Source: Bdellovibrio bacteriovorus W (GTDB taxonomy: Bacteria; Bdellovibrionota; Bdellovibrionia; Bdellovibrionales; Bdellovibrionaceae). Taken from it: DNA of 64,000 nt. Of the stretch, positions 2,602-34,838 are shown in pieces. The stretch covers positions 496,001 to 560,000 of the forward strand of contig CP002190.1 of the NCBI GenBank assembly GCA_000525675.1. Direction: 5' to 3'. The notes under the pieces are model-generated. The model saw only the letters and a list, made by a program, of their open reading frames with translations, was not told the DNA's origin and made no database searches. Position numbers and translations under genes: made by a program. Positions within the stretch are counted from its first letter, which is position 1; each line of letters starts with the position of its first letter.

Positions 2602-2797
2602 AGGGACCTCTTTTCGATAGGATTAATCAACTGAAAGTACATGAAATCCATAAAGGATGCGGGGCTAAAAGACAACCAACTAGACGGCAAAAAGGTATTT
2701 CGTCGAGAAGTGGTGGCAAAATATTTTGGCAAGGCTCTTGCTTTATATATTTATCAGAATGGCATTGGAGCCATATCGCTACTAGATGGGGGTTTTT

Positions 2798-3037
2798 ATG
2801 AGAGCACTTTTACTATCTGCAATGATGACACTTTCTACTTTGGGTCTTGTTGTGAAGGTAGCAAAGGCCGCTGATATCAATGCACCCCAATGCTCGATGG
2901 CGAGTGAGGGAATCTATCAAGGTTATTGGGTAAAACACCGAATCGTTGTTGGTGATAGCGTTGTTGCAGGGGCAAATGACATGGGAGCTATCTTGCAGCA
3001 CCTTGAAAGCTTGCGTGATCAAGGTTTTTGCCGCTAA
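2798..3037 (+). CDS. Small secreted protein, unknown function
   Basis: A 79-aa protein with a clear signal peptide (MRALLLSAMMTLSTLGLV then AKA-AD, predicted cleavage after AKA) and a mature part of about 55 residues with two Cys, one near the start (APQCSM) and one near the end (GFCR), which could form a disulfide. I prefer the ATG at 2798 over an in-frame ATG at 2786 because GGGGG lies just upstream of it. It is divergent from tldD and ends 12 bp before the EpmA-like gene, so the two may share a transcript. I do not recognise the family; the mature part (IYQGYWVKHRIVVGDSVVAG) gives no functional hint. Confidence 0.6.
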   Translation: MRALLLSAMMTLSTLGLVVKVAKAADINAPQCSMASEGIYQGYWVKHRIVVGDSVVAGANDMGAILQHLESLRDQGFCR

Positions 3038-3049
3038 AGTGGCAGAACT

Positions 3050-4270
3050 TTGGATAGAGCAGAATTTCTTAGAACAAAATGGCTAGCATATCCTGAAATT
3101 CCTTCGAATTCTCAGGTCTACGGGCGGATTTACCGCCTCGATCTTCAGCGTTCTCCGGCCTTGGTGGAAATTCATCAGGGCTCCGAAATACACAAACTTG
3201 AATTCACAGAGATTCCAGAAATCCTTTCAGTTTTAACTGAAGGAGATCTTGTGGCGTCAGATGCTAAAAAAGAGCTCGTATTATTGGCTCCGGCACTTCG
3301 TTCTTTGCCACAGAACAAAGTAGATCTTGAAATTTTAAAGCAGTGGAATCTTTTTGAAAAAGCCTTGCTGAACTTTTTCTGGGAAAGAGATTTTCTCCAA
3401 TTACGAACTCCATCGCTGGTCACTTGCCCGGGGACAGAGCCTAGTTTGGATGTTTTTTCTACGAAACTTAAAGTGGGTTCACTCACTAAAACACTTTTCT
3501 TACCCACGAGCCCTGAAATCCACCTCAAAAAAGCTTTGGCTCTAGGGGCTGATAAGATTTTTGAAGTAGCAAGAGTTTATAGAAATGGAGAAATCACAGA
3601 GCGCCATCAGCCCGAGTTTTTGATGCTTGAGTGGTACAGATCTTTTTCTAATTTACGCAACATTCAGAATGACGTGGTTGAGTTGGTGTACTTTTTGGCG
3701 GACCAACTGAGTTTGCCGAGGCCAGAAAGTGTTCAAACCTTTAGCGTGGCTGAGCTTTTTAAAATCCACTGCAACTTTGATCTTAAGCCCGATACGCAGA
3801 TACCCGAGTTGAAAGAATTAGCAGAGCAAATCGGTGTGGATGTTCGCAGTGCTGAGACCATCGACGACTATTTCTTTTTGATCTTCATGGAAAAAATTGA
3901 GTCGCAATTGCCACACAATAACCTAGTTTTTGTGACGGAATACCCACCTTATCAGGCGGCTTTAGCTCGCTTAACTCCATCTGGTTGGGGAGATCGATTT
4001 GAAGTTTATTGGAAAGGCCTCGAGTTAGGAAATGCCTTTCATGAGTTAAATGATCCGAAAATTCAGCGTCTGCGCTCTGCAGAGGACTTAGCGAAAAAAG
4101 CTCAAATGAACAAAGAGATGATCGATCTTGATGAAGAGTTTTTCCAGTGCCTAGAAGCAGGAATGCCACCTTCCGGTGGCATCGCTATGGGTGTTGAGAG
4201 ATTGTTCATGGCCTTATTTGATATCGAGGATATAAGTAAGGTTCAGACCTTTTCCCACTCTCGTTATTGA
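3050..4270 (+). CDS. epmA: EpmA-like lysyl-tRNA synthetase paralogue (EF-P lysine ligase type)
   Basis: Class II aminoacyl-tRNA-synthetase-like enzyme of the EpmA/GenX/PoxA family, which in E. coli attaches beta-lysine to elongation factor P. Motif 2 is seen as RVYRNGEITERHQPEFLMLE with WYR after it, and motif 3 as GGIAMGVERLFM. PTSPEIHLKKAL and ERFEVYWKGLELGNAFHEL-like segments match E. coli EpmA closely (here DRFEVYWKGLELGNAFHEL). At 406 aa it is about 80 residues longer than E. coli EpmA; the extra N-terminal part looks like a small beta-rich domain. The start is a TTG at 3050 with a weak SD, so the start is uncertain. No efp or epmB gene is in view. The 3' end overlaps the convergent HU/IHF gene by 7 bp. 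Confidence 0.85.
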   Translation: MDRAEFLRTKWLAYPEIPSNSQVYGRIYRLDLQRSPALVEIHQGSEIHKLEFTEIPEILSVLTEGDLVASDAKKELVLLAPALRSLPQNKVDLEILKQWNLFEKALLNFFWERDFLQLRTPSLVTCPGTEPSLDVFSTKLKVGSLTKTLFLPTSPEIHLKKALALGADKIFEVARVYRNGEITERHQPEFLMLEWYRSFSNLRNIQNDVVELVYFLADQLSLPRPESVQTFSVAELFKIHCNFDLKPDTQIPELKELAEQIGVDVRSAETIDDYFFLIFMEKIESQLPHNNLVFVTEYPPYQAALARLTPSGWGDRFEVYWKGLELGNAFHELNDPKIQRLRSAEDLAKKAQMNKEMIDLDEEFFQCLEAGMPPSGGIAMGVERLFMALFDIEDISKVQTFSHSRY

Positions 4271-4560
4271 GAGTCTTCTTCAGCCCCTTTATTGATGTCT
4301 TCTTTGAGTTCTTTTCCAACTTTGAAGAATGGAAGTTTCTTTTCTTCCACATTGATGATTTCGCCAGTGCGAGGGTTACGTCCTTTGTAAGCGCCATATT
4401 GACGGTTTACGAATGAACCAAAACCACGGATCTCAATACGATCATCACGCATGAGAGCTTCCACCATAGAATCAAAAATCGTGTTCACTACGGTTTCAGC
4501 TTTTACGCGAGTGATCCCGGCTTTTTCAGAAATGAGATTTATTAAGTCCGCTTTAGTCAT
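4264..4560 (-). CDS. HU/IHF-family DNA-binding protein (IHF-beta-like)
   Basis: Small nucleoid-associated protein that bends DNA, 98 aa. TKADLINLISEKAGI at the N-terminus, RIEIRGFGSF in the core, GRNPRTGE in the DNA-binding arm and PFFKVGKELKE near the end are all standard HU/IHF signatures. The RIEIRGFGSF and FKVGKEL pieces resemble IHF-beta more than HU. The start at 4560 is chosen because GAGGAT lies upstream at suitable spacing; a TTG 21 nt further upstream gives a non-conserved extension. The acidic C-terminal tail (GAEEDSQ) is unusual. It converges with and overlaps the EpmA-like gene by 7 bp. Confidence 0.93.
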   Translation of the reverse strand: MTKADLINLISEKAGITRVKAETVVNTIFDSMVEALMRDDRIEIRGFGSFVNRQYGAYKGRNPRTGEIINVEEKKLPFFKVGKELKEDINKGAEEDSQ

Positions 4561-4660
4561 CTTTTTGCTTATCCTCAGCAAAGTGTAGCTTAAAGTATTG
4601 ATAACACTCCCGATTATACCGATCTACGGGGCCCTGACCACCACTTTTCGCCTATTTAAC

Positions 4661-5923
4661 TCAATGCTTCTTATACAATCCGGTGTTGAGTAGTATTTTC
4701 TTATAGGCTTCGACGGTAGATTGCACCATTTTTCCGGTATCAAAGAGATCTACGACCTTTTGACGAGCTCTTTCGCCTATTTCTTCAGCTGGCATGGTAC
4801 CTGAGAAGATTTCCACCAAAAGATTGCTCATCGAGTCCACATCGGCTGGGCGTAGTAAAAAACCATCCCTGCCATCTTCTATAATATTAGCAATCGGAGA
4901 GACTTCAGAGCCCATCACGATCTTTTTTTGCGCCATCGCCTCTAAAGTCGAAGGTTCAAATCCCGTTGTACGGGAACCCATATTCACGAAAACATCACCA
5001 AGAACAATATAATCTTCGATTTCAGTGGCAGGAACGGCGCCGACCATCAGCACTCGGTTACCCAGAGCACGATTTAAAACCTGAAATTCAATCTCTCGAA
5101 ACTGAGGGCCATTTCCGACTAAAAGGAGATAACTGTTTGGCTTTTTAATGGCGACTTTTTCAAAGGCATTTAAAAGAGGAATAAGCTCCTGCGTCTCTGT
5201 CATATCTGAAATAGTGACGGCCACATGGGCATTTTCAGGGATATGGAGTTTTCTGCGCAGTTCGAGAGACTTCTCTTTCGGAGTTAAATCACCCAGTTCG
5301 ATTCCGTAGGGAACCGTATAAGTGTGAAAATCGGGGTACAAATAATATCGTTCAAGAATGATTCTTTGCTGAGGATTGGTAACAAAAACTCCATCAGCAG
5401 TGGCGAGCAATCGGCTATCGCCTCCATAGAAAGTTGTTAAAAACTTATAAGCCGTAGCGACAGCCGTAGTTAGCATACTGCCCAGAGTGTCTTGCCTCAT
5501 TCCCAAAATTGCAAAAAGTTGCGACATTTGCGTGGCTTCGACGTCATAGGCAACGGCCACTTCAAGCTCAGCTTTCCGACTGCTAATTCTGTATGCGGAT
5601 CTGTCGATACTGTGGATAAGATGAAATGGTTCTTCTTTATGGAGTTGCAGAAACTTCTGTCTAACAGCCATTTGAAAACTTGCAGGAGAAGTATTTTTGG
5701 CTCCTTCTTGCAAGAAAAGCACGCGAACACCGTCACGAATAACTTCTGATTTTTTAAGCGGAGAGTTGGCTGCTAAAACTGTGACCTTGTGGCCCTCTTT
5801 AGCAAGTCCCTTCGCAATGGGCCACAAAAACCCATGATCAGTGGCTCGACTGAGAATAGGAAATCTCTGCGATGTGAGGCAGATATTAAGTGATTCCGGC
5901 AGGGATTTCTTGCGCTTAAACAT
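4661..5923 (-). CDS. Family 4-like glycosyltransferase (GT-B fold)
   Basis: Glycosyltransferase of 420 aa acting in the cytoplasm, probably on envelope glycan. The N-terminal half has the acceptor-side pattern DHGFLWPIAKGLAKEGHKVTV. The C-terminal half has the nucleotide-sugar site: LLVGNGPQFREIE, then FVNMGSRTTGFEPSTLEAMA with the E-x7-E-type motif (FEPSTLEAM), then DGRDGFLLRPADVDSM. It begins with MFKRKKSLPE and has no signal peptide or TM. The upstream glycosyltransferase-like gene ends 3 bp before its start, so the two form an operon. The sugar and acceptor cannot be deduced. Confidence 0.85.
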   Translation of the reverse strand: MFKRKKSLPESLNICLTSQRFPILSRATDHGFLWPIAKGLAKEGHKVTVLAANSPLKKSEVIRDGVRVLFLQEGAKNTSPASFQMAVRQKFLQLHKEEPFHLIHSIDRSAYRISSRKAELEVAVAYDVEATQMSQLFAILGMRQDTLGSMLTTAVATAYKFLTTFYGGDSRLLATADGVFVTNPQQRIILERYYLYPDFHTYTVPYGIELGDLTPKEKSLELRRKLHIPENAHVAVTISDMTETQELIPLLNAFEKVAIKKPNSYLLLVGNGPQFREIEFQVLNRALGNRVLMVGAVPATEIEDYIVLGDVFVNMGSRTTGFEPSTLEAMAQKKIVMGSEVSPIANIIEDGRDGFLLRPADVDSMSNLLVEIFSGTMPAEEIGERARQKVVDLFDTGKMVQSTVEAYKKILLNTGLYKKH

Positions 5924-20324: not shown

Positions 20325-20361
20325 TTGTCATTTTTCGCAATCGGGCTCATACTATTTAGCA
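20318..20361 (+). promoter_or_regulatory. Hairpin and possible promoter in front of dgcB
   Basis: AGCCTGATTG around the pgi stop codon pairs with CAATCGGGCT (one G-U), forming a 10-bp stem. Within it lies TTGTCA (20325) with TACTAT about 19 bp later (20350-20355), 5 nt before the dgcB ATG. No SD is visible before that ATG. If this promoter works, the dgcB transcript would be leaderless or nearly so. Confidence 0.3.
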
Positions 20362-21296
20362 TGGTCACGAGCGATGATAATTCCAATGATATTTTAGAAA
20401 AAACGAGCATTGTTGCGAGCGATACCTTTAAAGGTCGCCTTAAAGAAGCTGATGAAGCTCCTCCCGCAATTGTTGTTCTGATCGGTCCTCCGGGATACGT
20501 GGGGAAACAATACCCAATTACAGCCAGTGATATCGTTATTGGTCGCTCTGTTGAGAGCCAAGTTTATATTGATGATAAAAGCTTGAGTCGTTCTCATGCG
20601 AAGTTTGCAGTAATAGGCAGTGAAGTGTCTGTGATAGATCTTGGTTCAACCAATAAAACGGTTGTGAATGGTCAAGTGATCCCGCCATTGGCTTCGTGTT
20701 TATTAAAAAACAACGATCAAATTAAAACGGGCAATGTCATTTTCAAATTCCTTGAAAGAGGAAGCGTTGAGTTGATGATGAATGCGGCGATGTACGAAAG
20801 AGCGTCGAAAGATGCTTTGACGGGCGCGCACTCAAAAGGGGCGTTGATTGAAAAAGGCCCAGAGGCGATGAAACGCGCCGAAGTTCTTAACGAGCCATTG
20901 AGCCTTGTGACGTTTGATATCGATCATTTTAAAAAAATCAACGATACCCATGGGCATCCTGCGGGTGACTATGTTCTAAAAGAGCTTTGCCACGTTGTTA
21001 TTACTAAGCTGATTCGTTCAAATGACTTCTTCTCTCGTTATGGTGGAGAAGAGTTCGTCCTATTGCTTTCGGGTTCTCCTTTAAAAATTGCAGGAGATGT
21101 CGGTGAGCGGATTCGCCAAACGATTGAGTCCCATGAGTTTGTCTTTGATGGCAAAAAAATTCCTGTGACAATTTCTGTGGGTGTAGCTGGCAAGCTTGCG
21201 CAAGAAACAGAGTGGACACAAATTTATGAGAGAGCCGATCGAGCACTCTACCAATCCAAACAAGGTGGCCGTAATCGCGTCACGGTTGTAAGTTAA
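20361..21296 (+). CDS. dgcB: FHA-GGDEF diguanylate cyclase DgcB
   Basis: Makes cyclic di-GMP. Order: N-terminal tail (residues 1-35) with Thr15 in ILEKTSIVAS, FHA domain about 40-130 (IVIGRSVESQ, SLSRSHAKF, GSTNKTVVNG), GGDEF domain about 150-310 with active-site GGEEF at 228-232 and an RSND inhibitory site at 219-222. In B. bacteriovorus DgcB the FHA domain binds the phosphorylated tail and the enzyme is needed for prey invasion (established knowledge, recalled). The start at 20361 gives the known tail; a TTG at 20325 would add 12 residues overlapping the pgi stop region. A bidirectional terminator follows. Confidence 0.93.
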   Translation: MVTSDDNSNDILEKTSIVASDTFKGRLKEADEAPPAIVVLIGPPGYVGKQYPITASDIVIGRSVESQVYIDDKSLSRSHAKFAVIGSEVSVIDLGSTNKTVVNGQVIPPLASCLLKNNDQIKTGNVIFKFLERGSVELMMNAAMYERASKDALTGAHSKGALIEKGPEAMKRAEVLNEPLSLVTFDIDHFKKINDTHGHPAGDYVLKELCHVVITKLIRSNDFFSRYGGEEFVLLLSGSPLKIAGDVGERIRQTIESHEFVFDGKKIPVTISVGVAGKLAQETEWTQIYERADRALYQSKQGGRNRVTVVS

Positions 21297-21323: not shown

Positions 21324-21350
21324 AAAAGGCTCTATTATCAGAGCCTTTTT
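21324..21350. terminator. Bidirectional terminator between dgcB and giant lipoprotein A
   Basis: AAAAGGCTCT (21324-21333) pairs with AGAGCCTTTT (21340-21349), loop of 6, with A and T runs on both sides. It serves the converging dgcB and giant lipoprotein genes. Confidence 0.88.
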
Positions 21351-24300
21351 CTATTCTAGTTTATACTCACCAATCCCCTGACATCCGTTGTAGATAACAG
21401 GAAATACAAGGCGATCTGGCAGAAGAGAGTCTGCGGGCTTAAAGAGCATTGCATATCCATTGCAGCGAAACCCAGCAGGCATGGGAAGACGTTCAGAGAC
21501 GCTTGGACCTATAGAATAAGTCCTCATCAATTCTCCGGTATTCGCGCAGCTATACACATAGTCTTTATAGACATAGAAGCTGTTCGACGGATGATCTAAG
21601 AAAGCCACTTTTTGAAAAGAGCCCCCGGCCTTAATTCTATAAAGAGTCGTCGGTGCATTCCCTACTTTGCCGAATGACGACGAGCCTGTGACAATCCATG
21701 AATCGGAGGTCGAATCAAACTGAGCCTTCGGTGAGCTTCCTAAGCCATATCCCCAAAGAGGAGTATTTATTCCAAGAGCGCCATCCACGAAATCTATATT
21801 AGTGTTTGGGCCTCCGTTACCAATAGTATGGCGAACATAACTTGATGCCCCAGGAAAATTAGTCATTTCTTTAGTTGAAACCTGCATATTGTTCCACTCA
21901 GAAACGAATGTCATACCGCTTATTAAGATTTTTTTTGTACTAGCAAATTTTCCAAATGCTCCGGGCATGGCTGCGTAGGCGAACTGGTAGGAGTTTAAAT
22001 AACCCGACGATGTATCCGAAAAGTTGGGATAAGATCCCGGAGCACTGGCGGGCAGAGCTGTCCATTGATGAGTCGAGTTGATGAGTCTACAAACGCGACT
22101 ATCATTTTCGCCGAGGCGACAGCCGAAATAGATGTCCCCATTATCTGAGTCAGAGGTAAAAATAGGAGTGCTTAGATTTCCCGCCATTGTGATGCCTTGG
22201 GACCTGGCATCGCCTCCTACCTGCATATAACCAGTATAAGAACCGTTACCAGCAAGGTGGCGTGATTGTTGAGAAAGATTGTTAGGAATAATTTCAGTGA
22301 ACTTATGATTGGCATCGTCGTAAGCAATGACTTTGGCTCCGGGGCCATGATCAATGGACGTAATATTATTGAACTTGATATTATCGAGTTTTGCATTGTC
22401 GGGACTGTTTTTATGTGAACCATAGAGACTGTAAATTCGATTGTTCTTAATGACTCGAAATATGCCTTCTTCCATTAGATAAATGCTTGAGAAGCGATTC
22501 ACAAAAACGGTATCTAAAAGGACGGCAGACGTTGAGGCTACAGAATTGTCGGGACTGGTCCCATGCACATCATTTCCTGCGACAGCGGACCATGTGTTGG
22601 AGGCTTTATTAAGTTTTAAAAGCCGATTGTGAGTGAAGCGATTATAAAAGTAAGTTTCGTTATCCATAGAGTTGGCAATGTTATAAACAAGCGAAATATT
22701 TCCATAAGGAGAGGGGAGAGCGCTCTGAGCGACACCTGTAGGAGAAAATTTAGCAGGGTATCCATGAGTATTACCCACGACAGGTCTTCCCAGAAGGACA
22801 ATCATGCTGGTGGCATTCCCAGTGATGGGATCAAATTGCACAGACCAATTATGAAAGGGCATGGAGGCTGTATTTGCACTATAGGTATCAGGCCAAGTTA
22901 GTCCTCCGCTAAGGCGAATGGTTTCAATGCGTGGCTTTGGCAAGCTTCCACGATAGACTTTAATACTGGTGGAGTCTGTAGCATCGCCACGGAAGTAAAG
23001 ATCGCCATTAGGTATGAAAACTAAAGAGTTATATGTATAAGGGCTACTTATTTGAATGTTCATTTTAAAATTGCGTGGATCTAATACAATATCCGCCGTG
23101 GACTCGCCGAGCTGTCCCTCATTGTTGGCACCGATAACAGAAGTAATTGTCCATGGAGAAGTGTGCGTATCAATCTTGCGAATACGATTGATATCCTGAA
23201 TCCAAATATTATCTAAAAAGTCGACGGTGAATTTGATAATACTTCCCGCGCGAGCCTCTTCAACGGGGCCACCGTCACCAGAGGGTGTCGAATTATCCGA
23301 TGCTTTGAGGATGACTTGGGTACTGAAGGTGAGGGGGTCAATTCTAACCAATCCTCGAGTGTCATTGATAAGAATCATTCCGTTCGTCAAGGTAACGACT
23401 TGTCCCACGCCTGCAGAGTTCGAATTGTACGAGGGGCTAAGGCGAGTCAGTCGAGGATCAGAGCCATCTCCAGAATCCAAGTTACCAGCCAACAAACGAA
23501 AATCGCCTGCATTAAAAAGAGCTGAGCGTAAGGAGCTTGCCTGTCCGTATTCATCGACAACACGGATTTGTAGAGCAAAACTTTTCGCAAGCGGCACGGT
23601 GCTTGACCAAACGGCACATCCCGTAAACTCACTGGTTAATACACAGTCGCCATTTGCATCGTTAATGAGGTCTTCTTGTACGACTTCGAATTTTCCATCT
23701 TCAACAGAAAGTAAAAGTTGAACCTTGGAAATACCTTTATTATCTGAAGCATTCCAAAATAGATGAATATCTGTCCCGAGATTGGCGGTGAGATCCACCC
23801 AAGATGGAGGAAGTTGAGGGTCCGGCTTATTAGCCGCGATGAAGCGATCTACATTTGGGGGAGCGTCGATAAAGTATTGAAGTGTGACTAAGTCTTTTCC
23901 GATAGCGATAGGTATCATGTGATCTGAAATATTTAGACCACGATCGCGAACCCATAGATACATTTGATGAGTATCAGGAATTATGAGGTCGAACTTAACT
24001 ATATCGGTTTGTATTTCTCTATCCGGGGTTATGCCAAAGGTTTCCAAAGCAACCCAGCAGTTATCTGAGTTTGTAGGCTTAGATGCACTATTGGATTTTA
24101 AACAGTAATGAGTAATATCGGTCTGTGTATCTTGCGCATGAAACTCAATGTTGATTACCTTGGAATAGCTTGGAAGCGGATTTGTTGAGCCATTAATTTT
24201 ATAACTTTCGAAAATCACCTCTGGTGGAGTTACATCCTTAAGTACTTCAAACTCAATTGATTCCACTGTGCTCGTCTGTCCAGAGTTATCGGTTAAAGTG

Positions 24301-26081
24301 ATTCGAAGTTTTTGTTGCGCACCGATGTGAGTCGGGGTCCAACTGTAAAAAATTTTTTCAGCGGCTAGGGGACTTATCTTATTGAGAGCTTGAGAACCGG
24401 CATTTACCCAAGCACTTCCGTTAAAAAGCTCAACATAAAAAAGAGTCGATGGTGAAATATCAGCCTCTGTAACTCTAAAAGTTAATAAGTAAGGAATAGA
24501 TTCTGGTAAATATTGGGGGACTGAAGAAATTGTAATGGTGGGAGGTTTCGTGTCATAAAGAACGAATGTTTCAATACTTGCATAATTACCGACTTCATCT
24601 ACAAAGAATGCGTAAATAGCTCTTGAGCCATTTTCACCGCCAGACAAGTCATAGATATAATCTCGATCTGTTGAACAATCTTGCCATTCGGGATCAGAAA
24701 TTGGAGGCATGAAGCCAGACTCGGAGACAAAAACGTTTGTGGCGTCATCACAAGTAGAAATATTGAATTTTGCAAAGTCTTCCTTATTTAATCTACTTTG
24801 CAGTGTCCATAGAGGTTTTATCAGGACAGTATCTTTGATAACTGAAAAATTAATTTCGGTAGAGTTTGTAGCTGCATCGGTAGATACAACTTTTAAATTC
24901 TTAGCTCCGTCATTTCCCGCCAGTGTCGCAGATAGTTCATAAATAGAATCTTTGCAAATCGTTGATTGGGGAGAGTTGACAATTGCGCCTTGTAGTTGGA
25001 CGGACGTTCCAGATTCACAAGTGCCTTTGACGGTGGCTTGGGAGGGTTGTTTCTGGCCTTCCGAGGGACTTGTAATTGTTAATGCGGGTGCGACCTGATC
25101 GAGAATGATATCGTTTGATTTACTAAGCTGACTCATGCTTTGAAAGTTTCCGTATTGATCTCCAGCAATAAGACATAAACTATAGATGCCGTCCCCAAGA
25201 TCTAGCTCTAAAGTATAGTTAGTGGAAGTTTGAGGAGAAAGAGCTGTCAGTTCGTCGAAGTGCGCATCGCAATTAGAATTAAAAATACGCAGAACTTTGT
25301 ATTGAGTCGCGTCACTTGGAAATACAAATGTGGCAGTCTTTTCGATATTGCTATTCGTAATATACGGTGTTGGTAAAGAAATTTGAATCTTGTTAGCTGG
25401 AGCGAGCGTGTCTTTAAGGATATTGATACGCTGTTCGCTTGTATTTCCTGCAAGATCTTTTTGTACGATGAGAATCTCTACGTTGCCCTCGGGGAAGAGC
25501 TCGAAATCAAAGAAGCCCGTGTATTGGCTACCTATACAAGGGAAGAATCCAATGAATACACCATTTACATAGACTTCAACGGGAAGATCGCCTTGTGAAC
25601 AGGTGCCCGAAACTGAAAAGGGATTGGGGCTATTTGAGGTTATTACCGATTCAACGGGATTTACAGATCCCAGGCTTGGGGGAGTGAGATCAATGATATG
25701 AATGGACTCAGTTTGTGATGTGATTCCGTGAATGGTCGTAGAAGTTGAAATGATGCTATAGGCACCTTCTTCCCAGCTTAGGGTATCTTTTTCAAATTGA
25801 TATTCTCCATCAATACATTCGACCTGAACTGTATCTATTGAAAGGCGATCTGAAGAAAATATCTGTGCAGTGAGTTTGCCACTATTTTGAAAACATAAAC
25901 CGCGGAATGAATAGTTGGCAGATATTGACGATTGGCCGATATAAAGTTTTTCATACTTTTCGTTTAGAGAATTTACAAGGTAAGGAGACGGATGAGAAAA
26001 GGGAGCCTTGCTATCGATTCTAATACAACCGACTATGCTTAGAGCAAAAAAGATGGAAATTCCAAAACGTAATATATCCAT
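21351..26081 (-). CDS. Giant lipoprotein A: Ig-like stalk plus propeller-like C-terminal half
   Basis: 1,576 aa. The lipoprotein signal is MDILRFGISIFFALSIVGC (lipobox IVGC, C19). Residues about 40-860 contain repeated bacterial Ig-like units, each opening with motifs such as DLTPPSLGS, KDTLAPANK, LDQVAPALTITSP, DTKPPTITISS and KDVTPPEVIFES. From R862 (RLLAGNLDSGDGSDPRLTRL) the protein changes to a propeller-like half with NHL-type wording (SGDGGPVEEARAG, then IWIQDINRIRKID). It ends in YNGCQGIGEYKLE. The likely place is the cell surface, with the stalk holding out a binding or enzymatic head. A paralogue with the same layout follows upstream on the same strand. No catalytic residues are evident. 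An adhesin-like role is an inference. Confidence 0.8.
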   Translation of the reverse strand: MDILRFGISIFFALSIVGCIRIDSKAPFSHPSPYLVNSLNEKYEKLYIGQSSISANYSFRGLCFQNSGKLTAQIFSSDRLSIDTVQVECIDGEYQFEKDTLSWEEGAYSIISTSTTIHGITSQTESIHIIDLTPPSLGSVNPVESVITSNSPNPFSVSGTCSQGDLPVEVYVNGVFIGFFPCIGSQYTGFFDFELFPEGNVEILIVQKDLAGNTSEQRINILKDTLAPANKIQISLPTPYITNSNIEKTATFVFPSDATQYKVLRIFNSNCDAHFDELTALSPQTSTNYTLELDLGDGIYSLCLIAGDQYGNFQSMSQLSKSNDIILDQVAPALTITSPSEGQKQPSQATVKGTCESGTSVQLQGAIVNSPQSTICKDSIYELSATLAGNDGAKNLKVVSTDAATNSTEINFSVIKDTVLIKPLWTLQSRLNKEDFAKFNISTCDDATNVFVSESGFMPPISDPEWQDCSTDRDYIYDLSGGENGSRAIYAFFVDEVGNYASIETFVLYDTKPPTITISSVPQYLPESIPYLLTFRVTEADISPSTLFYVELFNGSAWVNAGSQALNKISPLAAEKIFYSWTPTHIGAQQKLRITLTDNSGQTSTVESIEFEVLKDVTPPEVIFESYKINGSTNPLPSYSKVINIEFHAQDTQTDITHYCLKSNSASKPTNSDNCWVALETFGITPDREIQTDIVKFDLIIPDTHQMYLWVRDRGLNISDHMIPIAIGKDLVTLQYFIDAPPNVDRFIAANKPDPQLPPSWVDLTANLGTDIHLFWNASDNKGISKVQLLLSVEDGKFEVVQEDLINDANGDCVLTSEFTGCAVWSSTVPLAKSFALQIRVVDEYGQASSLRSALFNAGDFRLLAGNLDSGDGSDPRLTRLSPSYNSNSAGVGQVVTLTNGMILINDTRGLVRIDPLTFSTQVILKASDNSTPSGDGGPVEEARAGSIIKFTVDFLDNIWIQDINRIRKIDTHTSPWTITSVIGANNEGQLGESTADIVLDPRNFKMNIQISSPYTYNSLVFIPNGDLYFRGDATDSTSIKVYRGSLPKPRIETIRLSGGLTWPDTYSANTASMPFHNWSVQFDPITGNATSMIVLLGRPVVGNTHGYPAKFSPTGVAQSALPSPYGNISLVYNIANSMDNETYFYNRFTHNRLLKLNKASNTWSAVAGNDVHGTSPDNSVASTSAVLLDTVFVNRFSSIYLMEEGIFRVIKNNRIYSLYGSHKNSPDNAKLDNIKFNNITSIDHGPGAKVIAYDDANHKFTEIIPNNLSQQSRHLAGNGSYTGYMQVGGDARSQGITMAGNLSTPIFTSDSDNGDIYFGCRLGENDSRVCRLINSTHQWTALPASAPGSYPNFSDTSSGYLNSYQFAYAAMPGAFGKFASTKKILISGMTFVSEWNNMQVSTKEMTNFPGASSYVRHTIGNGGPNTNIDFVDGALGINTPLWGYGLGSSPKAQFDSTSDSWIVTGSSSFGKVGNAPTTLYRIKAGGSFQKVAFLDHPSNSFYVYKDYVYSCANTGELMRTYSIGPSVSERLPMPAGFRCNGYAMLFKPADSLLPDRLVFPVIYNGCQGIGEYKLE

Positions 26082-26193
26082 TCAATAAGCCTACCTATAC
26101 TTGTTTATCGAGTGCTAATCATAAAAACTTTATAAAAAATGAGCCTCCTAATAAATGAGACGGAAATATTTTAAAAAAATAACAAACAGAAAC

Positions 26194-28278
26194 CTATTCT
26201 AGTTTATATTCGCCAATTCCCTGACACCCGTTGTAGATAATCGGAAAAATAATGCGAGCTGGAAGCTGAGGGCCGGTATTTTTAAAGATCATCGCATTGC
26301 CTGAACAGCGGAAGCCCTCTGGTAAGTTTAGCTTTGTCGAAACAGCAGGCCCGGTCATTGGAGTCCTTCTGATTTCTCCCGTAAGGTCACAGCTATAGAC
26401 AAAACCTGCGTGAATATAGAAACTTCGAGCTGCATGATCTAAAGCTCTGACTTCCGTAATGGTGCCGCCCACTTTGGTTTTATGAATCAATGTCAGTGGT
26501 TGCAGAGCCATCGACAGAAAGGCTGAAGTGCTCGTGATATACCACTCGTCCGTCGCAGCAACGTACTGAGGTCTTGGCATGCTCCGAAGTCCGCCGCGAA
26601 GATGGGATGTTGCTGCGTTGGCACCATTGGTATAGTTGCCTCCGAGGAACTTACTTGCCTGACCAATGAGATGCTTCACAGCCCCTCCTGCTGGCAGGCC
26701 GCTGACCTCTTTGATAGATTCGACGTGATAGCCATCATCGGCGGTGTAAGTGAAATTCATAGCGCCGACGAGAAGCTTCTTGGTGCCTCCTGAAGTCTTG
26801 GCAAATCCACCTACTAGGCCCGTATAGGCAAAGATATAATCAACAAGATTTCCATCTCTGGGAACATCGAAGTAGGTCGCAATATCCTTGCCAGTGCCAA
26901 TGGGATGCCCGGAACTATTCATCGCACTCCACACTCTTGTTGTGTTATTGAGATAGCAGAGCTGGCTGACATTGCTGTTCGTATGACATCCAAAATAGAT
27001 ATCTCCTGTATCAGCGTCTGAAGCAAAAGGAGGAGTGGTGTAGTATGCCGACATAGTGAGACCTTGAGTGAGGCTGCTATCCCCTGGGGTCATCGGAAGA
27101 GTGTAGATACCGTTCCCAGCAAGGTGTCGAGAAGGATAGCTTTGGTTATTCGTTTGAATCTCTGTGAATTTATAATTTCCTTCATCGTAGATAATCACGT
27201 TATCATTTTTTCCATGATCGATGCTGCTGATGCTATTTAACTTCAAGCTCTCCAATGGAGACTGATCTGGACTGTTTTTAGAAGTCCCATAAACCGTGTA
27301 GAGCTGATTGTTTTTAACAACTCTAAAGATTCCTTTTTCCACAAAGTAAATATTAGAAAAGCGATTTACGAATGATGTATCTAGCAGGACAGAGCTTGAA
27401 GAAGCCGTAGAGCCATCCGGGCTAGACGCATGGACGTCATTACCCATTATGAGGTCCCAGGTGCCTGCTGCGTGATTTAGTTTTAAAAATCGATTTGCTG
27501 TAAAACGATTGTAGATATAGGTCTGTCCGTCCATTGCAGACACAAAGTAATAGACTGAAGACTGATTAGGATAAGGAGGTTGGGCAATGGCTCGAATGCT
27601 TTGACCATTTAAGCCAAATTCCGCAGGGTAAGAATAGATATCTCCGATAACAGTTCTTCTCAGCAAAAGAATAATACTTGTCGCAGCTCCACTGAGAGGA
27701 TCAAATCTCACCGACCAGTTAATAAAGCTCATGTTGGTGGCATTTTCACTATATGGAGATCCCATCCAATCCCAGGAAAGAGCCCCAGAAAATCGGATCG
27801 TTTCAATTCGAGGCTGAGGGAGGCTTCCTTTATAAACTCTTAAGGTCATAGAATCATAAAGAGTGGATCTAAAATAGAGATCTCCATTGGGTGTGAAAAT
27901 CATTTGATCATGGTGAAATGGAGCGTTTAATCCTGTTTCAAAGCGAAGATTGCGAGGGTCTAAAATAGTATCGGCAAAGGAAGTCCCTTTGTTGCCTGCA
28001 TCATCTGCCCCAATCACAGAACTAATGGTCCAAGGCGTGGTGTGTGTGTCGATTTTACGGATGCGATCTACATCCATAATCCAAATGTTATCAAGGTAAT
28101 CGACAGTAAATTTAAACACTCTTCCTGCCAAGGCATCTTTGACGTTCCCACCATCTCCGCGCGGTATCGAGTCGTCCGAGTTTCTTAGAACGACTTCAGT
28201 CATTGATTCTTGAGGTGAAATCTTTACGAGTCCTCTACTGTCGTTGATGAGAATGTCACCACTCGTCAAGGTGGCCAT
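26194..28278 (-). CDS. Giant lipoprotein B, C-terminal propeller-like part
   Basis: Frame from the first ATG after the TGA (MATLTSGDILINDSRGL) to the stop: 694 aa. It carries the propeller-like half (RGDGGNVKDALAG, IWIMDVDRIRKIDTHT, YGTSKNSPDQSPLESLKLNS) and the conserved end YNGCQGIGEYKLE shared with paralogue A. There is no signal peptide and no convincing SD at this ATG, so it is unlikely to be made and exported as an independent protein; about 32 codons of the domain lie between the TGA and this ATG. Best read as the 3' part of one split locus. Confidence 0.55.
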   Translation of the reverse strand: MATLTSGDILINDSRGLVKISPQESMTEVVLRNSDDSIPRGDGGNVKDALAGRVFKFTVDYLDNIWIMDVDRIRKIDTHTTPWTISSVIGADDAGNKGTSFADTILDPRNLRFETGLNAPFHHDQMIFTPNGDLYFRSTLYDSMTLRVYKGSLPQPRIETIRFSGALSWDWMGSPYSENATNMSFINWSVRFDPLSGAATSIILLLRRTVIGDIYSYPAEFGLNGQSIRAIAQPPYPNQSSVYYFVSAMDGQTYIYNRFTANRFLKLNHAAGTWDLIMGNDVHASSPDGSTASSSSVLLDTSFVNRFSNIYFVEKGIFRVVKNNQLYTVYGTSKNSPDQSPLESLKLNSISSIDHGKNDNVIIYDEGNYKFTEIQTNNQSYPSRHLAGNGIYTLPMTPGDSSLTQGLTMSAYYTTPPFASDADTGDIYFGCHTNSNVSQLCYLNNTTRVWSAMNSSGHPIGTGKDIATYFDVPRDGNLVDYIFAYTGLVGGFAKTSGGTKKLLVGAMNFTYTADDGYHVESIKEVSGLPAGGAVKHLIGQASKFLGGNYTNGANAATSHLRGGLRSMPRPQYVAATDEWYITSTSAFLSMALQPLTLIHKTKVGGTITEVRALDHAARSFYIHAGFVYSCDLTGEIRRTPMTGPAVSTKLNLPEGFRCSGNAMIFKNTGPQLPARIIFPIIYNGCQGIGEYKLE

Positions 28279-28374
28279 TTGATTGACCCCAGAGACGTTC
28301 GACTCGTAAGAGGGGCTAAAGCGCGCCAGGCGAGGATCTGCGCCGTCTCCAGAATCAAGATTTCCTGCTAGAAT

Positions 28375-30975
28375 TCAGAAAGGTCCTGAGTTGAAGACAG
28401 CAGAACGTAGACTTGCAGCTTGATTAAACTCATCAAAGACTTTGAGTTGTAGAATGAAGCTCTTGCCGATAGGAGCAGAATTACTCCAGCCAAAACATCC
28501 TGTATATCCTGAGGGCACGGCAGAGCACCCTGCATTCAGTCCGTTTGCAAGTCCATCACTGACAACAACAGCTTCCTCTCCATCGACGACCAATAAGAGT
28601 TGTACGTTTTGAATAAAGGTATTGTCGGAAGCGTGCCATGCAATATGAAGGATTTGACCAGGATTGGCGGTGAGGTCATTCCAAGAAGGCGGAGCTTGCG
28701 GAGTTAAGTTGTTGGCTGCTAAGAGTTTTGATACTTGTGGAGGAGCATCGATATTATATTGAATATCGACAAAGTCTTTTCCTCTTGCAGGAGATCCTTG
28801 TAGCTGAGAAATATTGAGTCCTCGATCGCGAACCCAAAGATAAAGGCGATGTGAACCCGGAATTACGAGATCGTGTTTGATCTGGGTAGGGTGAAGATTC
28901 TTGGCAGGTTCAATTCCAAAGGTCGAAAATGAAACCCAGCACATATCGCTGTTCAATGGCTGTGTTGCGGTTTCTTTAATGCAGTAGTGAGTAATATCGG
29001 TTTGTGTATCAATGGCCTCAAAGGCGACAGTCACGATTTTTGAATAAGTCGCTGCTGGTGTTGAAGATTCATTCAAGAGGTAAGAGGCAGAGGTAATTTC
29101 TGGTGGAGTTGTGTCTTGAACAATTTCAAAAGCATTGGATTCGACGGTCGTGGACTGGCCTGAGTTATCACTTATGCGAATGCGAATCTTTCGTCCTGTG
29201 CCAATTGAAGAGGGAACAGGCCAATTGTAGAAAAACTTTTCTCCAGAAAATGGGGAAATTTTATTCAAGGCTTGTGATCCCACGGCCGACCAAGTTGAAC
29301 CATTAAAGAACTCGACATAGAAATGCGTGCTTGCAGCAATGTCAGCCTCTGTGAGTCTAAAGGAGAGGCTTGTGGTGATGACCTCAGGAAGAGGTGAGGG
29401 GATTGTGTCTATCACGATAACTGGGGGTTTGGTGTCTAACAAAAGATTGTGCTCAATAATACTCGATAGATTTCCAGCTTCATCGCGGAAATAAGTGAAC
29501 AGAGTTCTGAGACCATCACTTCCTGCGGAGAGGTCATAGACATAGTCGTTCAGAGTTGAGCAGTCTTGCCAAAGCAAATGATTCAAGGCAGGTTTTGTAC
29601 TCGATTCAGAAATATAAACTTTAGTGACATCACTACAAGATGAAATGCTAAAGACTGCTGTCGTCTGATTATTTGGACGAGCTGCCAAAGTCCAAGTCGG
29701 CATCTCAAGAACAGTGTCTTTAGTAACGGACCAGTTTTTCGTCACGGAAGTGTTGCCCGCATGATCTGTGGAAGAAAGTTGCAGGGCTTTAGAGCCATCC
29801 GGCGTTAGTAGTTCTAAGGTAAAACTGAAATTAGAACTGCTACAGGTGGCTTCAGAAGGTGAGCCCACAAACGGGCCAGAGATATTGACCGAAGCTTGGT
29901 TCTCGCACAGCCCGTAAATAGTAACTTCGCTCTGATGTTTGGAATTTTGTGCAGCTCCAGAGATTGTAAAATCCGGTGCCAGCGTATCTAAAGTGATGCT
30001 ACCTGAAGAAACAATCAAGCTCGCATTTTGAAAGTTATCATGTTCATCGCCAGCTAGAGCGCAGGCTTTGTAAACTCCGTCTCCGCTATCTAGAGGGATC
30101 GAGATAGAAGCTGTGCTGACCGGAGATTGTGCAGAGATTTCGTCATAGTAAAGACTACAGTCATCATCTTTGACGATAAGATACTTATACTGCGTTCCTT
30201 CAGGAGGGAGAGTGACAGAGAGAGTTTGTGCCGTCGTACTTTTGGTCAGCGATTGAGTTGGTGCAGAAAACGCCAGGGGTAAAATGGGAGGAAGAGTGTC
30301 CTTAAAAAAAGAAAGACTTTGCTCGGTTTTATTTCCAGCACGATCTGTCTGAGAAAACAGAACGCTGTTATCGCCTTGAGGTAAAAGACTGGTATCAAAG
30401 ATAACGTTGTACAGATCATTCACACAGACAACGGGATGCAGCTCGATCTCATTGACCTGAAGATTGAGGTCTCCATCACCAGTAGTGCAGGCGCCAGAGA
30501 AAGAGTATGGATTTGGACCTGCTGAATTCACAAGGTTTGCAAAGCTAGCAGGCAATTTTAGATCGGGAGGAGTTATGTCCTTAATGATCTCAGCCGTGGA
30601 ATAAGAAGAAACTCCGTACTCTGTTGTCGAAGTCATTTTAATTTTGTAGCTATCCTCATTCCAACTTTGCACATCAGCTTCAAAAGAGAACTCATTATTC
30701 ACGCAAGTAACGGGATAGGTTCCCTTCAGTGAGCCATCATTATTGAGGACCTCGACTTTGAGCGTCCCTTTGGGATCGGTCTGGAAGCATTTACCTTTAA
30801 AGGTGTAATTTGCAGAATCAGTCTGTCTATTAATATACAGGGATGAAGTGAGTTCGCCTTCTGCAGAAATCAGGTAGGGGCTATCGTACGAGCTTAGGTG
30901 CTCGACGTTGAGAGCTAAACAGCCAATAAGTTGCATTAGAATAAATGCGGAAGTACCAAAACGTATCAAATCCAT
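28375..30975 (-). CDS. Giant lipoprotein B, N-terminal stalk part
   Basis: 866 aa up to the TGA. The start at 30975 gives MDLIRFGTSAFILMQLIGC, a lipoprotein signal that aligns with the start of paralogue A; AAGGA lies about 10 nt upstream. An ORF start at 31044 would add 23 non-conserved residues. The product has Ig-like units opening with IKDITPPDLKLP, KDTLPPILPL, DTKPPVIVIDT and QDTTPPEITSA, and ends in SAVFNSGPF, the last residues of the stalk. If the stop is real, this is a membrane-anchored stalk without its head. Confidence 0.7.
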   Translation of the reverse strand: MDLIRFGTSAFILMQLIGCLALNVEHLSSYDSPYLISAEGELTSSLYINRQTDSANYTFKGKCFQTDPKGTLKVEVLNNDGSLKGTYPVTCVNNEFSFEADVQSWNEDSYKIKMTSTTEYGVSSYSTAEIIKDITPPDLKLPASFANLVNSAGPNPYSFSGACTTGDGDLNLQVNEIELHPVVCVNDLYNVIFDTSLLPQGDNSVLFSQTDRAGNKTEQSLSFFKDTLPPILPLAFSAPTQSLTKSTTAQTLSVTLPPEGTQYKYLIVKDDDCSLYYDEISAQSPVSTASISIPLDSGDGVYKACALAGDEHDNFQNASLIVSSGSITLDTLAPDFTISGAAQNSKHQSEVTIYGLCENQASVNISGPFVGSPSEATCSSSNFSFTLELLTPDGSKALQLSSTDHAGNTSVTKNWSVTKDTVLEMPTWTLAARPNNQTTAVFSISSCSDVTKVYISESSTKPALNHLLWQDCSTLNDYVYDLSAGSDGLRTLFTYFRDEAGNLSSIIEHNLLLDTKPPVIVIDTIPSPLPEVITTSLSFRLTEADIAASTHFYVEFFNGSTWSAVGSQALNKISPFSGEKFFYNWPVPSSIGTGRKIRIRISDNSGQSTTVESNAFEIVQDTTPPEITSASYLLNESSTPAATYSKIVTVAFEAIDTQTDITHYCIKETATQPLNSDMCWVSFSTFGIEPAKNLHPTQIKHDLVIPGSHRLYLWVRDRGLNISQLQGSPARGKDFVDIQYNIDAPPQVSKLLAANNLTPQAPPSWNDLTANPGQILHIAWHASDNTFIQNVQLLLVVDGEEAVVVSDGLANGLNAGCSAVPSGYTGCFGWSNSAPIGKSFILQLKVFDEFNQAASLRSAVFNSGPF

Positions 30976-31320
30976 TCTGTTGAATTCCTTCAATCTGTAC
31001 TCAATTTGTCGGCAGAAACTCTTGTTTTCTTGAGAGTTTCTCAAAGTAAGATGAGCGGTCTTTCTGGCACTAGGCTAAGGTTTGAAGGCATAAGTCTTTC
31101 TTATGAGACGCATAACGTGTTGCGCAAAAACGAAGTGATTTCGTGAATTTAGGGCCATTATGACCACAAAAAAGTCGGCATCACTGTTGCAATTACTTCT
31201 TTGTAAGCGATCACCGGTTTGGTGGGGGAGAATTTACCGGGCGCTGGGGGGAGTTGTGAGGACTCTTTCAGGAAAAAAATTCACAAGATTAACCGAATTT
31301 AGACAGAAACGAGTCAGAGT
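30976..31320. other. 345-bp divergent intergenic region
   Basis: Lies between giant lipoprotein B (minus) and the ECF sigma gene (plus) and must hold both promoters. I see no confident -35/-10 pair, no terminator and no known RNA. A 58-codon plus-strand frame from 31160 overlaps the sigma start but lacks family support. Confidence 0.4.
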
Positions 31321-31941
31321 ATGCAGAGAGATCTAGAACTAACGGATCTTGAACTGGTTGAAAAAGTAAAATCTGGTGACAGAAGGTCTTTTTCAGAACT
31401 CGTGAGACGACATCAAAGAGGATTGCTACGGTTGAGTTTAAGGTTCATGAAGGACATGGATGCAGCGGAAGATGTTACGCAAGAAGCGTTCATCAAAGCT
31501 TACGAGAAACTTCACTCTTTTGAGGGAAGAGCTTCTTTCAAAAGCTGGTTGTTTCAAATTGCAGTGAATACTGCAAGGAACAAACTTCGTGAAACTAAAA
31601 GACATGTAGTTGATATTGATGATGTAAATTTAGCAGTGGATGCAGAAGCAGAGTCTAACTTGGTTCACTCAGCAGTTTCTGATGTTTTGCAGACTGAAGT
31701 TGAAAAACTTCCGTTCAAACAAAGAACTGCTCTCGTTCTAAGAGTTTACGAAGACTTAAGCTTTGCTGAGATCGCAGAGATCATGGAGTGTCCATACGAC
31801 ACTGCTAAAGCAAACTACAGACATGCCCTTTTAAAATTGCGTGCAATTTTTGAAGAGCAATCTGAGTTAAAAAACTGGTCTGAAGAAGTTGGTGGTTTCT
31901 TTATGGAAGTTCATCAACGCTACGCTGAAGTAGAGGGTTAA
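31321..31941 (+). CDS. rpoE: ECF (RpoE-type) RNA polymerase sigma factor
   Basis: Group 4 sigma factor, 206 aa. Region 2: FSELVRRHQRGLLRLSLRFM and DAAEDVTQEAFIKAYEKLHS, with FKSWLFQIAVNTARNKLRE. Region 4: LPFKQRTALVLRVYEDLSFA followed by EIAEIMECPYDTAKANYRHA, a helix-turn-helix for the -35 element. In B. bacteriovorus the gene numbered next to dgcB (Bd0743) is an RpoE-like sigma factor linked to heat-shock control (from memory); this gene is probably its orthologue. A membrane protein gene follows after 4 bp, in the usual place of an anti-sigma factor. Confidence 0.93.
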   Translation: MQRDLELTDLELVEKVKSGDRRSFSELVRRHQRGLLRLSLRFMKDMDAAEDVTQEAFIKAYEKLHSFEGRASFKSWLFQIAVNTARNKLRETKRHVVDIDDVNLAVDAEAESNLVHSAVSDVLQTEVEKLPFKQRTALVLRVYEDLSFAEIAEIMECPYDTAKANYRHALLKLRAIFEEQSELKNWSEEVGGFFMEVHQRYAEVEG

Positions 31942-32945: not shown

Positions 32946-33668
32946 TTACTTCAGACCCAATTTAGAAAGTCCAAGATGTGTAGCTTTGCGGGCAAGATCC
33001 TCAAATAGAGGTCTCATTGCCGAGGACAGATCGAAGTCCTTCATGCGAAAAGCTTTGTCACAGCTGAGTGATGTAGGAAGAGAGAGATCTTTAAAAGTGA
33101 GAACAGTCTTTCCTAACGTCTCTTGGGATTCAATATCCCAAACCTCAAGGCCTACAGAGAGATAGGCGATGAGTTGCTCTTGAGCGCTTGTGTTTTCGCA
33201 ATAGAGTCCATACCCAGCGTTGACACTTTCATTCTCTGGAGACGGCATGGGGTACATGAAGACAATATATGAAGCCCCTTGTTTTTTTGCCTCTTCATGA
33301 ATGTATCTCTGAACACCTTGATAGCGGTTTCCAAGATAGATGTTTTTAAGTTGGAGAGCATCTTTGCGTTTATCCTCAATGAGCTGATTGTCGACAGCTA
33401 TATTAATGACTTGTTTGCCCGCGAGCTTGAAAGAAGCTTGAAGCTCTTGGTTTACAATTGCATTTAGGCCCCAAGCAGAAGTGTCGTAGTTAATATCTTT
33501 GGCGATCTTGTTCTTTTGTTTAAAGCGAATATTCAAATTCTCATCAAGAGTCGAAAGAGTTCCCACGTTGTTGATTTTATCAATAAGAGTCTGTTCACGC
33601 ATGAGCGATGCGCAGCCTGTTAAGCTAAATGCTAGACACAAAGTAGAAACGAATTTGAAGTTTTTCAT
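32946..33668 (-). CDS. Lipoprotein, unknown function
   Basis: 240 aa. Signal and lipobox: VSTLCLAFSLTGCAS, with Cys after LTG. The mature part is predicted soluble alpha/beta (YIVFMYPMPSPENESVNAGY; WDIESQETLGKTVLTFKD). I recognise no domain. It is convergent with the sigma-module sensor gene, abutting its stop codon exactly. The 87 bp upstream separate it from the aminopeptidase-like gene's end; it has its own start context. Confidence 0.7.
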   Translation of the reverse strand: MKNFKFVSTLCLAFSLTGCASLMREQTLIDKINNVGTLSTLDENLNIRFKQKNKIAKDINYDTSAWGLNAIVNQELQASFKLAGKQVINIAVDNQLIEDKRKDALQLKNIYLGNRYQGVQRYIHEEAKKQGASYIVFMYPMPSPENESVNAGYGLYCENTSAQEQLIAYLSVGLEVWDIESQETLGKTVLTFKDLSLPTSLSCDKAFRMKDFDLSSAMRPLFEDLARKATHLGLSKLGLK

Positions 33669-33755: not shown

Positions 33756-34838
33756 TTAACGAGAGCTGATTCTCTTCTGCAAATCCGAGATTTTTAAGCG
33801 CAGGGCCTCTTCAGGGCTTTTAGAAGACTCAAGTTCTTTACATACGACGATGAACTTTTCAAAGTTACGATCTACGAGTTGATAGAGTTGTTCAAACTCA
33901 TCAAGATTTTGCATATAGGTCTTGTAGATCAGCAGTCGGGCATTATTTAGATTTAACGTAGAAAAACGCGAGTATTGTTGACCTTGAAGACGAGGCAGAA
34001 CTTCGTTTCTAAAGCGCGTTTGAATTTCTTGGAGTCGGGCTTTGCGGATGTCTTCAGTTCTTTCTAAGGCAGAGATGTTTTTATACCAATCTTTAAGGTT
34101 TTTTATCTCCTCTGAGATAAAAGCAGAGAAAACTTTACTGTCTTCATTGTCGATCTTAACTTGCTGAAGTGTTTCAGAGTCAGGACCTTCGCGTTCTAAA
34201 TAGAAGTACTCAGCTCCTTTATTCCCTAAAAAACTAGCTAAGCGTTCATTAAAGTCTGCGGCGTGTTTGATATACAAAGTGGCATGGACAGTTTCGTGAA
34301 TGATTGTATTGACGAGATCATAGTCCTTATAGCGCATCATTGAACTTAGGAGTGGATCATCAAACCAACCGAGGGTGCTATAGGCGGTGACTCCGCGCAT
34401 GTAGGTATCAAGATCGTCGCCTTTTAGCTTTTCTTCCTCACTCTTTGCATCCTCTTCATTGAAGTATCCCTTGTAGGGCATTTTTCCTAAGAAGGGATAG
34501 CTCCACTGATGGTGTTCTAAGCTCCACTTCGGAGCTGCACTCACCACATAGGTCACATAAGGACGATCCAATTCAACATAAGATTTATAATTTTTTGTGG
34601 GCTTAAGGTGCAAACGCTCTTCGGCAAACTTTCGCGCATCTTGGCTGATAGAAAGCTTATGGCGAGTATCCTTAGAAAGGTCTTCTCGCTTAAGGACTTC
34701 TTCCACGGGGACACGTGATGAAAGAAGTTTCATCTGCCCGTATCCTGATTTCATGATGTACGTTAGCTGACATCCCGAGAGCAAAAGGCTAAGGCCTCCG
34801 CTAGCTACTAAGATAGCTAAAGATTTTAGAGGGCCCAA
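33756..34838 (-). CDS. Putative aminopeptidase lipoprotein (COG4324 type)
   Basis: 360 aa. The N-terminus SLAILVASGGLSLLLSGCQ is a lipoprotein signal (LSGC). The zinc motif is HETVHATLYIKHAADFNERL (HExxH plus downstream Glu), preceded by AYSTLGWFDDPLLSSMMRY, and followed by ASFLGNKGAEYFYLEREGPD. This set matches the predicted aminopeptidase family I know as COG4324. It is probably periplasmic and anchored to a membrane. The start overlaps the end of the upstream outer-membrane protein gene by 13 bp, so they are an operon. Activity is predicted only. Confidence 0.8.
   Translation of the reverse strand: MGPLKSLAILVASGGLSLLLSGCQLTYIMKSGYGQMKLLSSRVPVEEVLKREDLSKDTRHKLSISQDARKFAEERLHLKPTKNYKSYVELDRPYVTYVVSAAPKWSLEHHQWSYPFLGKMPYKGYFNEEDAKSEEEKLKGDDLDTYMRGVTAYSTLGWFDDPLLSSMMRYKDYDLVNTIIHETVHATLYIKHAADFNERLASFLGNKGAEYFYLEREGPDSETLQQVKIDNEDSKVFSAFISEEIKNLKDWYKNISALERTEDIRKARLQEIQTRFRNEVLPRLQGQQYSRFSTLNLNNARLLIYKTYMQNLDEFEQLYQLVDRNFEKFIVVCKELESSKSPEEALRLKISDLQKRISSR

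What the first reader, a model, noticed from the sequence alone, without database searches (positions are those of the whole stretch)
21351..30975. Tandem giant lipoproteins with Ig-like stalk and propeller-like head between dgcB and the sigma factor
Two paralogues of about 1,580 codons share a lipobox, a stalk of Ig-like units and a C-terminal NHL-like half ending in the same YNGCQGIGEYKLE. In B. bacteriovorus HD100, dgcB and the RpoE-like gene carry consecutive numbers (Bd0742, Bd0743, from memory), so this pair looks like a lineage-specific insertion. Size, anchor and layout suit surface proteins that touch prey. I do not know a described family with this layout.
Basis: partly seen in the sequence, partly recalled or inferred. 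Interest (0 to 1): 0.62.

Follow-up and report, generated by a model that had tools for sequence, protein, structure and literature searches.

The report
Stalked double-propeller lipoproteins of predatory bacteria
Next to a key predation gene, a bacterial predator carries two copies (one broken by a stop codon) of a giant surface-type protein made of a lipid anchor, a stalk of immunoglobulin-like beads and a twin-propeller head distantly related to the propeller of animal teneurins; the head recurs across its phylum and is a plausible but untested way of gripping other cells.

Summary
Partly confirmed and extended. The window is from B. bacteriovorus W: its 3,006,992-bp genome length equals the published one. 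Copy A (21351-26081, minus) is an intact 1,576-aa lipoprotein. Copy B (26194-30975) is not intact: an in-frame TGA (28375-28377) sits exactly between stalk and head, so it encodes at most a headless stalk.

The layout is a lipobox, about 8 Ig-like units and a C-terminal head. The head is two consecutive NHL-type six-bladed beta-propellers by AlphaFold and fold search; its best solved relative is the bacterial teneurin-like protein (hmmsearch E=8e-33, Z=21.4), but there is no YD shell or toxin.

The pair is absent between dgcB and bd0743 in HD100 (450-bp gap, verified with published bd0743 primers). That interval holds different, mostly export-type genes in other species. The family itself is not lineage-specific: HD100 has a member near mreB, and the 717-column head occurs in 63 of 291 Bdellovibrionota genomes, at the extreme C-terminus wherever I read the whole protein, behind stalks of ~356 to ~3,420 aa.

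Best reading: an outer-membrane stalk presenting a recognition head. Fast divergence of the outer propeller supports this; surface display and prey contact are untested.

The parts
21351..26081 (-). Copy A: intact giant lipoprotein gene, 1,576 aa
26025..26081 (-). Copy A signal peptide with lipobox (SIVGC, Cys19)
   Evidence: sequence
23511..26024 (-). Copy A stalk, residues 20-857, about 8 Ig-like units; seven pairs of cysteines conserved with copy B
   Evidence: Pfam; AlphaFold; fold searches; cysteines and linkers
22440..23510 (-). Copy A propeller 1 (residues about 858-1214), closest to the NHL propeller of the bacterial teneurin-like protein
21354..22439 (-). Copy A propeller 2 (about 1215-1576), membrane-distal if the stalk is extended, fast-evolving in its middle (1353-1487), ends NGxxGxxEY
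26194..30975 (-). Copy B: paralogue of A, interrupted by one in-frame TGA
28378..30975 (-). Copy B open part: lipobox plus complete Ig stalk, 866 codons
28375..28377 (-). In-frame TGA at the stalk/head junction of copy B (Arg CGT in copy A)
26197..28374 (-). Copy B head-coding region downstream of the TGA; still open, no further stop or frameshift
21324..21349 (.). Inverted repeat with T tracts on both sides: likely two-way terminator between the convergent dgcB and copy A
   Evidence: 26-base inverted repeat, unique in the window
20325..21296 (+). dgcB (GGDEF/FHA), left border of the variable interval; real start probably ATG at 20361
31090..31320 (+). Upstream region of the sigma gene conserved across the genus: right border of the variable interval
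   Evidence: alignment
31321..31941 (+). RpoE-like sigma factor (Bd0743 orthologue), transcribed away from copy B

Best explanation
The intact gene makes an outer-membrane lipoprotein in which about eight Ig-like beads, most with a conserved cysteine pair (roughly 30 nm if extended, inferred), hold out a head of two six-bladed NHL-type propellers. The head is the functional part, a protein- or glycan-binding module used to recognise or grip another surface, most plausibly prey; the stalk is an exchangeable spacer. Shown here: anchor motif, Ig stalk, twin propellers by model and fold search, the head's fixed C-terminal position with swapped stalk types and lengths, and faster divergence of the outer propeller. 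Inferred: outer-membrane surface display, binding as the activity, prey as the partner. Copy B is a paralogue long kept under selection that a recent nonsense mutation (or a sequence error) has reduced to a headless stalk. The gene pair sits in a genus-wide variable interval between dgcB and the sigma factor that takes up different, mostly export-type genes.
For: Lipobox in both copies. Big_3_3 and Big_13 above Pfam cut-offs. Stalk model pLDDT 80 as beads, matching Ig/FnIII strings, among them GhpA of the bacterium Aureispira and the adhesin SiiE. Head profile against PDB: bacterial teneurin-like protein 9ifo E=8e-33, teneurins about 1e-7 to 4e-11. Model of residues 620-1576 (pLDDT 73): propeller 1 on 9ifo Z=21.4 over 295 residues, propeller 2 on teneurin NHL domains Z about 19. 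In 29 examined head matches on 28 loci (one protein counted twice), all but one a full-length model match, the head ends 0-5 residues from the C-terminus behind 356-3,423 residues; one stalk is 19 Big_9/cadherin-like repeats. Propeller 2 is less conserved than propeller 1 in two independent sets: 65 vs 80% among seven HD100-type orthologues and 46 vs 59% between A and B, lowest at residues 1353-1487. Variable cargo at the site: TraT-like lipoprotein, papain-type protease, another Ig-stalk lipoprotein, or nothing.
Against: No localisation, expression or binding data for any member. Lipoproteins can face the periplasm. Faster change of propeller 2 may be weak constraint, not recognition. Four genomes of the genus lack the head. 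Several members lack a lipobox; some of these start with a single membrane-type segment and others with a plain signal peptide, so the anchor is not uniform. The head model rests on six sequences and pLDDT falls below 50 in places.
Confidence: 0.58

Rival explanations
1. The protein acts on the predator itself: the propeller head binds the same or a sister protein on another Bdellovibrio cell, or the cell's own matrix or cyst wall (strain W forms bdellocysts), as teneurins do in homophilic cell-cell contacts.
For: Nearest structural relatives are teneurins, cell-cell adhesion proteins (PMC5851990, PMC9058538 abstracts). Strain W forms bdellocysts (PMC5941755).
Against: The head occurs throughout the phylum, so cyst formation cannot be its general role. 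Nothing shows self-binding; shared fold shows no function.
Confidence: 0.15
2. It is an inward-facing envelope scaffold: the propellers dock partners in the periplasm, as in BamB- or TolB-type proteins.
For: Lipoprotein anchor and propeller are both common in such proteins (general knowledge).
Against: Stalks of up to about 3,400 residues before the same head are far longer than a periplasm; the stalk is freely exchanged; the gene is dispensable in the genus.
Confidence: 0.14
3. It is a relic or part of a teneurin-like toxin system that lost the YD shell and toxin.
For: Sequence relation of propeller 1 to the bacterial teneurin-like protein.
Against: The head ends the protein in every examined member, with a second propeller where the shell would be; no Rhs/YD match; the form is conserved across the phylum, so it is not a fresh deletion.
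Confidence: 0.05
4. Copy B is a working, regulated pair of products: TGA is read through or the head is made separately, giving headed and headless stalks from one gene.
For: The stop falls exactly at the stalk/head border and the downstream frame is clean; the head half is no more diverged than the stalk half (dN 0.42 vs 0.53).
Against: One nonsense change is simpler; a clean frame has P about 0.44 after 1% neutral change; a separately started head would lack a signal peptide; position at a border is a post hoc observation.
Confidence: 0.06

Closest known systems
Bacterial teneurin-like proteins (e.g. Bacillus inaquosorum TLP, PDB 9ifo; PMC13018210)
   Same: Exported, predicted lipid-anchored in Gram-negatives, bacterial Ig units before an NHL propeller; propeller 1 is the best solved-structure match.
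   Different: Two NHL propellers instead of one, no YD shell, no C-terminal toxin; protein stops at the end of propeller 2.
Giant bacterial Ig-stalk adhesins (SiiE, Ca2+-stabilised adhesins, Aureispira GhpA)
   Same: Long string of Ig-like beads holding a tip away from the cell.
   Different: Lipid anchor at the N-terminus and a twin-propeller tip.
Bdellovibrio mosaic adhesive trimers (PMC10769870)
   Same: Multi-member fibre proteins of the same predator with a C-terminal tip.
   Different: MATs are trimeric beta-helical fibres with exchanged tips; here the tip is constant and the stalk is exchanged, with Ig beads and a lipobox.
Bdellovibrio MIDAS adhesin Bd0875 (PMC11003981)
   Same: Lipobox surface protein of the predator with the C-terminus outward.
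   Different: vWA/MIDAS head; no vWA match here.

Membership tests
Bacterial teneurin-like protein (TLP) | NHL beta-propeller of teneurin type | tested here: met
   hmmsearch E=8e-33 to 9ifo; fold Z=21.4
Bacterial teneurin-like protein (TLP) | YD-repeat shell after the propeller | tested here: not met
   protein ends 0-5 residues after the head in the examined members; no Rhs/YD match in Pfam
Bacterial teneurin-like protein (TLP) | FN-plug domain before the propeller | tested here: inconclusive
   an Ig-like unit precedes propeller 1 but was not compared with the FN-plug
Bacterial teneurin-like protein (TLP) | C-terminal toxin domain | tested here: not met
Pfam TEN_NHL (PF25021) | score over the curated cut-off of 27.1 bits | tested here: not met
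   copy B head 12.4 bits, no match in the genome at E<=0.01; other family members match to 4e-11
Bacterial Ig-stalk surface proteins | tandem bacterial Ig-like domains | tested here: met
   Big_3_3 30.5 bits, Big_13 34.1 bits, cut-off 27; model
Bacterial Ig-stalk surface proteins | display on the cell surface | not testable with these tools
   only the lipobox motif is seen
MIDAS adhesins | vWA domain with MIDAS motif | tested here: not met
   no vWA match up to E=1 in Pfam
Mosaic adhesive trimers | trimeric beta-helical shaft | tested here: not met
   shaft is Ig-like by Pfam and model; oligomeric state not tested

The most novel reading that the evidence does not exclude
A phylum-wide family of predator surface proteins with a constant double-NHL recognition head, sister to or source of the propeller that teneurins use for animal cell-cell recognition, presented on interchangeable stalks and, in strain W, parked in an exchangeable slot beside the c-di-GMP switch for prey invasion (dgcB).
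Probability: 0.12. Interest if true: 0.75.

Novelty: new variant of a known kind. Interest (0 to 1): 0.5.

Why it matters
How Bdellovibrio and its relatives recognise prey rests so far on redundant adhesin sets (trimeric fibres, MIDAS proteins). A family with one constant head across the phylum and variable stalks gives a single, expressible domain whose ligand can be sought directly. It also adds a shell-less, double-propeller branch to the bacterial relatives of the teneurin NHL domain.

Tried and rejected
Recent foreign origin by base composition rejected: GC 42.5 and 44.9% against 43.5% for the window. Plasmid-borne relatives: none. Readings as toxin, MIDAS adhesin or MAT rejected on domain grounds. 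HD100 locus tag of the member: Bd0207-Bd0210 searched, no Bdellovibrio paper names them. Experimental-evolution hits in NC01 (PMC9888234): no listed mutation falls in its member at about 2.83 Mb. Quantitative proteome main text (PMC12546842) gave nothing on it. dN/dS as a number is unusable because synonymous sites are saturated. Head distribution outside Bdellovibrionota could not be tested.

Full report
Source and observation. Copy A is open (1,576 aa). Copy B has one in-frame TGA at 28375-28377, where A has CGT (Arg). It cuts B at residue 867, the border of stalk and head.

State of copy B. A and B are 46% identical before and 53% after the stop. dN is 0.53 and 0.42 while synonymous sites are saturated, so both halves were kept under selection long after duplication. 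Neutral change of 5% of the downstream sites would leave the frame open with P about 0.02. The stop is therefore recent, or a sequence error; I cannot tell which. A product started after the stop would lack a signal peptide.

Anatomy. Pfam finds Big_3_3 and Big_13 in the stalk. D-x-x-P-P-type linkers and seven cysteine pairs conserved between A and B mark about eight units over residues 20-857 (the counting is mine). AlphaFold gives a string of beta domains (pLDDT 80, pTM 0.41); the nearest folds are Ig/FnIII strings, including GhpA of Aureispira and SiiE. Against PDB sequences the head profile matches the teneurin-like protein 9ifo (8e-33), teneurins, and NHL proteins. The model of residues 620-1576 (pLDDT 73, pTM 0.57) splits into two propellers: about 858-1214 (9ifo Z=21.4, 295 residues, 4.5 A) and 1223-1576 (teneurin NHL Z about 19, Pizza6 17.6).

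The family. In the family-level search 33 of 66 genomes match the protein, some only in the Ig part. With the head profile, 63 of 291 genomes of the phylum match at E<=1e-20 in at least nine taxonomic families. I read whole proteins on 28 loci: 29 head matches (one protein, the HD100 one, appears twice), all but one over the full model, each with a tail of 0-5 residues behind 356-3,423 residues. One stalk is 19 Big_9/cadherin-like repeats, others Big_13. Some members have a lipobox; others start with a hydrophobic segment or plain signal peptide. G006, G016, G024 and G025 of the genus show no head. Strain W has a third member at G000:C1:818581-823842.

The site. In HD100 (G003) dgcB ends 450 bp before the sigma gene, and all four bd0743 primer sequences of PMC3464611 (two of them with their cloning tails trimmed) match there. 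In the other genomes with both genes side by side on one contig the gap runs from 0.3 to 4.3 kb, against 10 kb in W; in G012, G015, G017 and G022 the order is changed. Fillers differ: a TraT-like lipoprotein (G023), a papain-type protease (G014), a 1,314-aa lipobox-type protein with Ig units and a Cys-rich end (G016), short exported proteins, or nothing. About 230 bp before the sigma gene are conserved and mark the right border; a two-way terminator-like repeat lies at the left. HD100's own member lies between glpD- and mreB-like genes; in W those two genes are adjacent, 149,557 to about 149,657, so that slot is empty. In the tree, A and B are sisters, then comes the second copy of strain kdesi (L004), then the HD100-type orthologues. 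So the family is old, its place is not; the W pair is a tandem duplication at a variable site.

Where selection acts. Among seven HD100-type orthologues propeller 1 is 80% and propeller 2 65% identical; between A and B 59 and 46%. The minimum in both is within residues 1353-1487, and the last 44 residues are again conserved (80%, 66%). This fits a distal recognition surface but also relaxed constraint.

How it most likely works. Sec export, lipidation at Cys19, outer-membrane sorting (no Asp at +2, by the E. coli rule, from general knowledge), an Ig stalk as spacer, and the propeller pair as binding head. The constant head on swapped stalks is the main argument that the head carries the function. 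Surface exposure, ligand and stage of the predatory cycle are inference. Nearness to dgcB may be chance: the genes are convergent with dgcB and separated from it by a terminator-like repeat.

Novelty. No Pfam or NCBIfam model covers the head, and eight literature searches found no description; subscription papers and supplements were not searched. It shares a domain with teneurin-like proteins but fails their defining YD shell. I rate it a new variant of a known kind.

Noticed in passing
L065 (G016:C29:11000-18000), 1393-5337: At the same dgcB-sigma site another genome carries a different 1,314-aa lipobox-type protein with Ig units and a cysteine-rich repeat end and no propeller head: same slot, other surface-type stalk protein.
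   Followed up: partly
L057 (G023:C1:715000-720000), 1681-2421: TraT-family lipoprotein (Pfam E=1e-69) inserted at the same site.
   Followed up: partly
window 20325-20360: The listed TTG start of dgcB is probably too early: homologues align from residue 8 and start near the ATG at 20361.
   Followed up: no
G000:C1:149557-149657: The slot that holds the giant gene and a small lipoprotein in HD100 (between glpD- and mreB-like genes) is empty in strain W.
   Followed up: yes
G009:C1:2551747-2553729: Strain kdesi has a head-only open frame (679 codons) without a stalk, the mirror image of copy B.
   Followed up: no
L103, L104, L116: Short members (about 1,060-1,080 aa) with a plain signal peptide and no lipobox: possibly secreted heads.
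   Followed up: no
window 33756-34838: Predicted lipoprotein with an HETVHATLY metalloprotease-like motif next to another lipoprotein gene (32946-33668).
   Followed up: no
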